From assembly GCA_947490615.1 (NCBI GenBank), contig CANLHK010000005.1, positions 150,576 to 214,575 on the forward strand: DNA of 64,000 nt, written 5' to 3'. The DNA comes from Planctomycetaceae bacterium (lineage in GTDB: Bacteria > Planctomycetota > Phycisphaerae > Phycisphaerales > SM1A02). Below, piece by piece: positions 35,937 to 37,172 of this stretch. How positions within the stretch are numbered: position 1 is the first letter of the stretch; every line of letters starts with the position of its first letter. A model generated the notes under the pieces. That model searched no databases and had not been told where the DNA came from. It was given only the letters and a program-made list of their open reading frames with translations. Position numbers and translations under genes: made by a program.

Positions 35937-37172
35937 TCAGTTGAACCGCAATTCGATGAGCGAGAAATCGTCGTCCCAACTCGCCGTCGCCGCCGCAGCG
36001 GGGATATCGGCCACCGCAACACCGCGCCCTTCAAGCATGACCCGCGTGGTCTCACGGACCACCGCATCGAGCAGGCCTTCTGCTGGGCTTTCCTGCAGAA
36101 ACGCAGCCAAACTCTCCACTCCCCAGATTCCACCACCAAGGAGGTGGAGTTCAAACACGCCGTCCGAGAAGAGGTAGAGCCGGTCCTTCGGCTCGAGGGT
36201 CATGCGCATCGTCGGCGCGTCGTAGTCGTCGGTCACGCCCACCATGTAGGTCGTCGACTCCAGTTGATGCAGCGTGTCGCCGCGCAGCAACATCGATGGA
36301 GGGTGCCCACCTCCTGCCCAGGCGAGTTCGCGCGTGCGACGGTCGTAGACGCCGTACCACACGGTGAAGTACATCCCGTCGTGTCGCGCCATCGGGAAGG
36401 CTGCGTTCAACGCGCTGAGCAGTCGAGTCGGATCGAGAAGTTGCTCGCGCTCGAGTGAGCCCGAGCGAATCAAGTTCATCGCCGACACACCCATGAGCGC
36501 AGGACCAACGCCGTGACCCGAGACATCGAGCACATACGCCGCAAGATGATCTTCGTCGATCCAGTGATAGCCAAACACATCACCGCCGAGTGACTCGCAA
36601 GGAACAAAGCGCCAATCCGCCTGCACGACTCCATCCATCGGCGGATCGAGCAGCGAGCGCACATAGCTCGCGGCGCGATGAATCTCCGCCTTCATGTGCG
36701 CCTCGCTGGCGCGCAGTGCTTCGTAGGCAGCGTTGCGTTCGAGCTGCATGCGAAATCCCCGCGAGTGATGGCGAATCCGCGCCACGAGTTCCACAGGATG
36801 CGGAAGCTTGACGAGGTAGTCGCTCGCGCCGCGCGCAAACGCATCGGCCTTCACCGCGGGATCTTCCTTACCCGTGAGCATGAGCACAGGAACATCGCGC
36901 AGCAGCGCGTTGGCGCGGTAGGCGGGCAGCAACTCAAGGCCGCTGAGACCTGGCATCTCAATGTCCTGCAGGATGACCGTGGGCTTGAACTCCAGCGCCG
37001 CGGCGATGGCCTGTGTCGGGTCTTGCACGCTGCGGTACTCGCAACCGCCGCCATCACCGCCACCCGCACCGTTCTGGGCAAACTGCGCTGCGATCATGCG
37101 ACGCACCGCCTCGCCCACGATGGCTTGGTCGTCGATCAGAAGCACGCGGTCGGTGGTGTTCATGGACTGCAT
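35937..37172 (-). CDS. Response regulator: WspR-like receiver fused to PP2C/SpoIIE-type serine phosphatase
   Basis: REC 'VLLIDDQAIVGEAVRR...FKPTVILQDIEMPGLSGLELL...ASDYLVKLPHPVELVARIRHHSRGF'; PP2C motifs 'SLGGDVFGY', 'YVLDVSGHGVGPALMGVSAMNLI', 'AGGGHPPSMLL', 'LYLFSDGVFE', 'DDFSLIELRF'. Confidence 0.93.
   Translation of the reverse strand: MQSMNTTDRVLLIDDQAIVGEAVRRMIAAQFAQNGAGGGDGGGCEYRSVQDPTQAIAAALEFKPTVILQDIEMPGLSGLELLPAYRANALLRDVPVLMLTGKEDPAVKADAFARGASDYLVKLPHPVELVARIRHHSRGFRMQLERNAAYEALRASEAHMKAEIHRAASYVRSLLDPPMDGVVQADWRFVPCESLGGDVFGYHWIDEDHLAAYVLDVSGHGVGPALMGVSAMNLIRSGSLEREQLLDPTRLLSALNAAFPMARHDGMYFTVWYGVYDRRTRELAWAGGGHPPSMLLRGDTLHQLESTTYMVGVTDDYDAPTMRMTLEPKDRLYLFSDGVFELHLLGGGIWGVESLAAFLQESPAEGLLDAVVRETTRVMLEGRGVAVADIPAAAATASWDDDFSLIELRFN

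What the first reader, a model, noticed from the sequence alone, without database searches (positions are those of the whole stretch)
35937..37172. WspR-type receiver spliced to an apparently active PP2C domain at the WspR linker position
The REC and its following helix ('VARIRHHSRGFRMQLERNAAYEALRASEAHMKAEI') resemble the recalled WspR REC-linker (VARIRYHSRSY...RDEAYRALRESQQQL). The output then switches to PP2C just after this helix. PP2C metal and catalytic motifs look intact (GGDVFGY, DVSGHG, GGHPP, SDGVFE, DDFSL). There is also a Gly-rich insertion (NGAGGGDGGG) early in the REC. This reads as a clean output-domain swap.
Basis: partly seen in the sequence, partly recalled or inferred. Interest (0 to 1): 0.75.

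Follow-up and report, generated by a model that had tools for sequence, protein, structure and literature searches.

The report
Wsp surface-sensing operon with phosphatase output
In this freshwater planctomycete the bacterial "Wsp" signalling array, famous for making the biofilm messenger c-di-GMP, ends instead in a protein phosphatase of the kind that releases anti-sigma-factor switches, and the same arrangement turns out to be common in Planctomycetota and in unassigned environmental DNA.

Summary
On the minus strand, 35937-37172 encodes a 411-aa response regulator: a WspR-type receiver (REC) and helix joined at about residue 155-163 to a PP2C/SpoIIE phosphatase with all metal residues kept. 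The gene is the last of a complete Wsp-type operon (MCP-CheW-CheR-CheW-CheA/REC-CheB), exactly where wspR sits in Azoarcus or Ralstonia. A CheA tree puts these operons in one clade with proteobacterial Wsp (100/100). In 151 genomes of the order, Wsp-type CheA and this protein co-occur in 29 of 30. The receiver groups with WspR, not with ordinary REC-PP2C regulators (p-AU 0.006). Metagenome relatives carry wspA-F, REC-PP2C, then an RsbW-type kinase and a STAS protein directly downstream. The best-supported mechanism is therefore a Wsp array driving an RsbU/V/W-style partner switch. Published work recognised only WspR (GGDEF) and WspH (histidine kinase) outputs, and only in beta/gammaproteobacteria. 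The receiver is also fused, in relatives, to HD-GYP, nucleotide cyclase, a WspH-like kinase and an FAD enzyme. The direction of the swap is not shown. Activity, phosphorylation and the partner in this genome are inferred.

The parts
35937..37172 (-). REC-PP2C response regulator (411 aa) in the wspR position; focus of the finding
36771..37145 (-). WspR-type receiver domain (residues 10-134; D14, D15, phospho-acceptor D70, K122)
   Evidence: Pfam; WspR PDB hits; REC tree; invariants
37044..37073 (-). Gly-rich loop insertion (residues 34-43) private to this species
   Evidence: low pLDDT 37-41
36654..36797 (-). Single long helix (residues 126-173) from REC alpha5 to the PP2C; join of the two homologies at ~155-163; heptads 150/153/157/160/164/167/171/174 run through the join
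   Evidence: AF2; identity switch; heptad scan
35940..36632 (-). PP2C/SpoIIE phosphatase domain with surrounding strands (residues 181-411; D198, D216, D337, D401, D402)
   Evidence: Pfam
37188..38288 (-). WspF-like CheB methylesterase (REC + CheB)
   Evidence: 15 bp before the REC-PP2C start
38285..40642 (-). WspE-like CheA-REC hybrid kinase (Hpt, H-kinase_dim, HATPase, CheW, REC)
   Evidence: Wsp clade 100/100 in CheA tree; best plasmid hits are Mesorhizobium and Cupriavidus Wsp CheA at 44-45% vs 31% for the next class
40537..41148 (-). WspD-like CheW
41166..42380 (-). WspC-like CheR methyltransferase with C-terminal extension
42365..43093 (-). WspB-like CheW (true start probably inside this ORF)
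42846..44996 (-). WspA-like methyl-accepting receptor, possible PDC sensor (26.1 bits, just under the Pfam cut-off)

Best explanation
It is the terminal response regulator of a Wsp-class chemosensory array whose output is a PP2C phosphatase instead of the diguanylate cyclase of WspR. A membrane receptor (WspA-like), held by two CheWs and tuned by CheR/CheB methylation, controls the CheA-REC kinase (WspE-like). WspE phosphorylates D70 of the receiver. Phospho-dependent dimerisation of the receiver re-orders the long coiled-coil helix, which pairs the PP2C domains and switches on Mn/Mg-dependent dephosphorylation of a STAS (RsbV-type) protein. The dephosphorylated STAS protein then binds an RsbW-type kinase and frees that kinase's client, probably a sigma factor or another regulator. 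Shown: operon, domain types, intact sites, orthology of receiver and kinase, co-occurrence, and in relatives direct linkage to rsbW and rsbV genes. Inferred: phosphotransfer, activation (rather than inhibition) by phosphorylation, STAS substrate, and final target.
For: Complete wspA-F gene order with this gene last, 15 bp after cheB, matching Azoarcus, Ralstonia and Mesorhizobium Wsp operons that end in REC-GGDEF. REC of WspR type. CheA in the Wsp clade. In 151 genomes of the order, 29 have Wsp-class CheA, 30 have this protein and 29 have both; the exception lies near a contig end. In the phylum, selecting by CheA not by output, the Wsp operons inspected end in REC-PP2C apart from G258 (WspH-like) and G243 (rsbUVW set on another contig). 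Metagenome loci found by this protein alone: 51 of 80 have CheA/CheB directly upstream. Ten have RsbW (HATPase_c_2) and/or STAS genes directly downstream on the same strand, e.g. L163, L164, L183, L192, with the phospho-Ser column and ATP motifs kept. L132: WspR-REC-PP2C, STAS, RsbW in a row. AF2 pLDDT 90 with one helix 126-173; closest folds are P. aeruginosa RssB, then WspR. RsbU is activated through such a coiled-coil linker, proposed to be exchangeable between PP2C, GGDEF and kinase outputs (PMC12143880).
Against: No RsbV/RsbW gene lies next to this operon in this genome. The candidate pair (contig C25, STAS 9500-9856, HATPase 9879-10304) is single-copy in nearly every genome of the order whether or not Wsp-PP2C is present, so it is not a dedicated partner. 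17 of 80 metagenome relatives with at least 1.5 kb upstream have no Wsp genes there. No biochemical data. pTM 0.73 leaves the relative domain placement open, and no dimer was modelled.
Confidence: 0.76

Rival explanations
1. The phosphatase still ends in c-di-GMP: as in P. aeruginosa SiaABCD or HsbRAD, the STAS-type partner it dephosphorylates controls a diguanylate cyclase, so the Wsp array keeps its classical output by a detour.
For: SiaABCD is an established PP2C-kinase-STAS-GGDEF pathway (PMC9239204), and SiaA PP2C is among the structural neighbours. The genome has three GGDEF proteins. In family f2 the same operon also encodes a REC-HD-GYP, i.e. a c-di-GMP hydrolase-type output.
Against: None of the RsbW/STAS genes found next to these operons is followed by a GGDEF gene in the loci inspected. 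No STAS or RsbW lies by the GGDEF genes in the listed hits.
Confidence: 0.2
2. The PP2C domain acts as a non-catalytic adaptor, as in E. coli RssB (phospho-dependent binding to a sigma factor or protease), rather than as a phosphatase.
For: Nearest full-length solved relative is RssB; P. aeruginosa RssB has adaptor function as well as an active-looking domain (PMC12143880).
Against: Unlike E. coli RssB all metal residues are kept and invariant in 53 relatives, and rsbV/rsbW genes follow in several operons.
Confidence: 0.1
3. The gene is an ordinary stand-alone REC-PP2C regulator that merely happens to lie beside a chemosensory operon.
For: REC-PP2C proteins are common, and REC-phosphatase regulators are reported in CheR-TPR/ACF chemosensory clusters (PMC3447774).
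Against: The receiver is WspR-type and rejected from the generic REC-PP2C group; position and co-occurrence with Wsp CheA are nearly perfect.
Confidence: 0.03

Closest known systems
WspR of the Wsp system (Pseudomonas, Azoarcus, Ralstonia; PDB 3i5a, 3bre)
   Same: Receiver domain and following helix, operon position, partner genes wspA-F, Wsp-class CheA-REC kinase.
   Different: GGDEF cyclase replaced by PP2C phosphatase; different phylum.
WspH of Burkholderia Wsp systems (PMC8552884)
   Same: Known precedent for a Wsp system whose WspR-like regulator carries another output (hybrid kinase).
   Different: Output there is a histidine kinase and the gene is 5'-adjacent; here it is a phosphatase at the 3' end. 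The paper lists only H- and R-systems, only in beta/gammaproteobacteria.
RsbU / SpoIIE / P. aeruginosa RssB PP2C phosphatases of partner switches
   Same: PP2C domain, metal residues, N-terminal regulator joined by a coiled-coil helix; in relatives rsbW and rsbV genes follow.
   Different: Input is a chemosensory array via a WspR receiver, not RsbT, PAS/GAF or a generic receiver.
Shewanella oneidensis Che1-CrsR/CrsA (PMC9855816)
   Same: A chemosensory gene cluster tied to a partner switch (RpoS).
   Different: [quoted passage not shown] not a Wsp operon and no WspR receiver reported.
Multidomain REC-phosphatase regulators in ACF / CheR-TPR clusters (PMC3447774)
   Same: General category: ACF chemosensory cluster with a REC-PP2C regulator.
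   Different: No link to WspR receivers, to Wsp operons or to partner-switch genes was found in its text.

Membership tests
Wsp chemosensory system | Gene set and order MCP-CheW-CheR-CheW-CheA/REC-CheB-response regulator | tested here: met
   same order in Azoarcus L147 and Mesorhizobium L250
Wsp chemosensory system | CheA of the WspE class | tested here: met
   Wsp CheAs one side of a branch, 100/100, against 14 other CheAs; 44-45% identity to Wsp CheAs vs 31% to the next class
Wsp chemosensory system | CheR fused to TPR repeats | tested here: inconclusive
   404-aa CheR with C-terminal extension but no TPR hit at E<=0.001
Wsp chemosensory system | Terminal regulator WspR (GGDEF) or WspH (kinase) | tested here: not met
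   Output is SpoIIE/PP2C; so a Wsp-class system with a third kind of output
WspR | WspR-type receiver and linker helix | tested here: met
WspR | GGDEF diguanylate cyclase domain | tested here: not met
   not a WspR
RsbU/SpoIIE PP2C phosphatase | Metal-binding Asp residues and DxxGHG motif | tested here: met
   D198, D216, D337, D401/D402 invariant; D216 and D337 aligned to SpoIIE 3t91
RsbU/SpoIIE PP2C phosphatase | Linked RsbV (STAS) and RsbW kinase | tested here: inconclusive
   Directly downstream in several relatives; in this genome only an unlinked, order-wide pair
RsbU/SpoIIE PP2C phosphatase | Mn/Mg-dependent phospho-Ser phosphatase activity | not testable with these tools
   needs protein

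The most novel reading that the evidence does not exclude
A PP2C/partner-switch output is the older state of the Wsp system, and the textbook c-di-GMP output (WspR) is a later exchange on the branch leading to Proteobacteria. Rooted CheA and REC trees nest GGDEF Wsp inside PP2C Wsp, but holding the PP2C systems together is not rejected for CheA (p-AU 0.27) and sampling favours PP2C loci.
Probability: 0.3. Interest if true: 0.8.

Novelty: new variant of a known kind. Interest (0 to 1): 0.64.

Why it matters
Wsp is a model surface-sensing system, described as limited to beta/gammaproteobacteria and to WspR or WspH outputs (PMC8552884). Here is a large group of Wsp arrays that feed a serine-phosphatase partner switch. 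It is a natural test of the recent proposal that coiled-coil linkers let bacteria exchange regulators between phosphatases, cyclases and kinases (PMC12143880): one receiver clade occurs with PP2C, GGDEF, histidine kinase, HD-GYP, nucleotide cyclase and FAD-enzyme outputs, sometimes two in tandem in one operon. It also warns that homology-based annotation of 'WspR' in planctomycetes does not mean c-di-GMP: freshwater planctomycete MAGs have been credited with WspE-WspRF (PMC6461901).

Tried and rejected
Generic REC-PP2C identity of the receiver: rejected. Single-species oddity: rejected, relatives at 46-83% identity in many Phycisphaerales and other Planctomycetota, and at least 590 metagenome relatives of the wider family. 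Dedicated RsbV/RsbW partner by phyletic correlation: uninformative, because the pair is nearly universal in the order. First quick REC tree had wrong-strand rows and was replaced. Consensus promoter/terminator scan uninformative in this GC-rich genome. Literature searches for WspR with PP2C or RsbU gave no description of this arrangement; subscription journals are mostly not held. The idea that the Gly-rich insert is functional was dropped: it is private to the species.

Full report
What is there. The ORF is on the minus strand (35937-37172, 411 aa). Pfam finds a receiver at 10-134 and a SpoIIE/PP2C domain at 206-380. By sequence the best solved relatives are the two WspR structures, E 6e-42 and 3e-41 over residues 7-160; the REC-PP2C protein RssB follows at 3e-21. 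In 53 relatives the receiver residues D14, D15, D70 and K122 and the phosphatase residues D198, D216, D337, D401 and D402 never vary; D216 and D337 align with the corresponding SpoIIE aspartates. The Gly-rich insertion is real, 11 residues long and private to this species.

Where the two halves meet. Identity to proteobacterial WspR is 0.40-0.71 per 20-residue window from residue 101 to 160 and falls to 0.10 at 161-180; identity to ordinary REC-PP2C proteins rises from 0.23 to 0.48 over the same stretch. AlphaFold2 (mean pLDDT 90.1, pTM 0.73) gives one helix from 126 to 173 across that join. Hydrophobic heptad positions 150, 153, 160, 164, 167, 171 and 174 run through it, with one nearly invariant polar a/d residue, E157. 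Fold search returns RssB first and then WspR.

The operon. Reading on the minus strand the window holds MCP (42846-44996), CheW, CheR, CheW, CheA-REC (38285-40642), CheB (37188-38288) and then this gene, 15 bp after cheB. This is the gene order of wspA-B-C-D-E-F-R, seen here in Azoarcus, Ralstonia, Cupriavidus, Burkholderia (partly) and a Mesorhizobium plasmid, all with REC-GGDEF last.

Homology tests. In a receiver tree of 72 sequences the WspR-type receivers form one side of a branch (94/96) against generic REC-PP2C, WspE and WspF receivers. Holding the window's group together with generic REC-PP2C receivers is rejected (p-AU 0.006). WspR-type REC-PP2C proteins are themselves not one clade, because GGDEF and HD-GYP proteins fall among them (p-AU 0.009). 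In the PP2C tree the phosphatase half belongs to a different, wider subfamily (100/100) shared with Nostoc REC-PP2C and with GAF- and FHA-linked phosphatases. The protein is therefore a chimera of two modules. A tree of CheA cores puts all Wsp operons, whatever their output, in one clade (100/100) against 14 other CheAs, with the GGDEF systems nested among the PP2C systems; holding the PP2C systems together is not rejected there (p 0.27).

Distribution. Among 151 genomes of the order, 29 carry Wsp-class CheA and 30 carry this protein; 29 have both, and the one exception has the gene near a contig end (genomes are related, so the Fisher p of 3e-30 overstates the independence). Selecting Planctomycetota by CheA rather than by output, the operons inspected again end in REC-PP2C, apart from G258, which has a WspH-like kinase, and G243, whose REC-PP2C lies on another contig together with STAS and RsbW genes. 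Relatives at 57-65% identity to the protein of G422 are named as Verrucomicrobia, Lentisphaerae, Elusimicrobia and others; taxon names of MAGs may be wrong. A metagenome scan gave at least 590 relatives; of 80 fetched loci, 51 have CheA/CheB directly upstream.

What it probably does. In ten of those loci an RsbW-type kinase and/or a STAS protein follows directly on the same strand (L163, L164, L165, L175, L183, L192, L193, L194, L222, L224); the kinases and STAS proteins sampled were confirmed by Pfam and keep the ATP motifs and the phospho-serine column. That makes the partner switch (RsbU-RsbV-RsbW logic) the best-supported output. This genome has an unlinked STAS-kinase pair on contig C25, but the pair is present in about 145 of 151 genomes of the order, so it is only a candidate. 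Activation by phosphorylation through the coiled-coil linker is inferred from RsbU and RssB (PMC12143880). No diguanylate cyclase with a WspR receiver was found in this genome.

More outputs on the same receiver. WspR-type receivers are also fused to HD-GYP (in tandem with REC-PP2C in the Wsp operons of G086 and G059, where the two receivers are sisters, 99/96), to GAF-HD-GYP and to a NAD_binding_9 FAD protein elsewhere in the genomes, to a histidine kinase and to a class III nucleotide cyclase in tandem with REC-PP2C. One array may therefore address several outputs; this is inference.

Compared with what is known. Kessler et al. (PMC8552884) describe WspR and WspH as the only Wsp outputs and the system as exclusive to beta/gammaproteobacteria. 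REC-phosphatase regulators in ACF clusters are noted in general (PMC3447774), a Shewanella chemosensory cluster is tied to a partner switch (PMC9855816), and WspE-WspRF was listed for freshwater planctomycetes (PMC6461901). I found no paper that joins these. I rate it a new variant of a known kind: a Wsp-class array with a phosphatase output, not a WspR.

Noticed in passing
L061:7535-9226 and 6306-7538; L062:6138-7790 and 4927-6141: Wsp operons with two WspR-type regulators in tandem, REC-HD-GYP then REC-PP2C, whose receivers are sisters (99/96): duplication plus output exchange within one operon.
   Followed up: partly
L176:8517-11209; L215:6753-9617: Wsp operons with REC-class III nucleotide cyclase directly before REC-PP2C, both with WspR-type receivers.
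   Followed up: partly
L063-L067 (e.g. L065:4230-6290): WspR-type receiver fused to a NAD_binding_9 FAD-NAD(P)-binding oxidoreductase, unlinked to Wsp genes; an unusual output for a response regulator.
   Followed up: no
L139:2332-11849 (G258): A planctomycete Wsp operon ending in a WspH-like REC-HisKA-HATPase-REC protein; WspH was reported only from Burkholderia.
   Followed up: partly
L250:3976-12376: Complete Wsp operon with WspR-GGDEF on Mesorhizobium japonicum plasmid pMLb, an alphaproteobacterium, against the published statement that Wsp is restricted to beta/gammaproteobacteria.
   Followed up: partly
L090:3811-12306; L091:2722-11348 (G023, G120): Wsp-PP2C operons without an MCP gene at the front; a REC-GAF-HD-GYP protein with a weak, divergent receiver stands in its place.
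   Followed up: no
Own genome contig C25:9500-10304: Adjacent STAS and RsbW-type kinase genes, single copy and nearly universal in the order (about 145 of 151 genomes): a core partner-switch pair of unknown client.
   Followed up: partly
26719-28734 (-): 671-aa protein that reads as glucosamine-6-phosphate deaminase fused to a PIG-L-type deacetylase (HPDDD motif).
   Followed up: no
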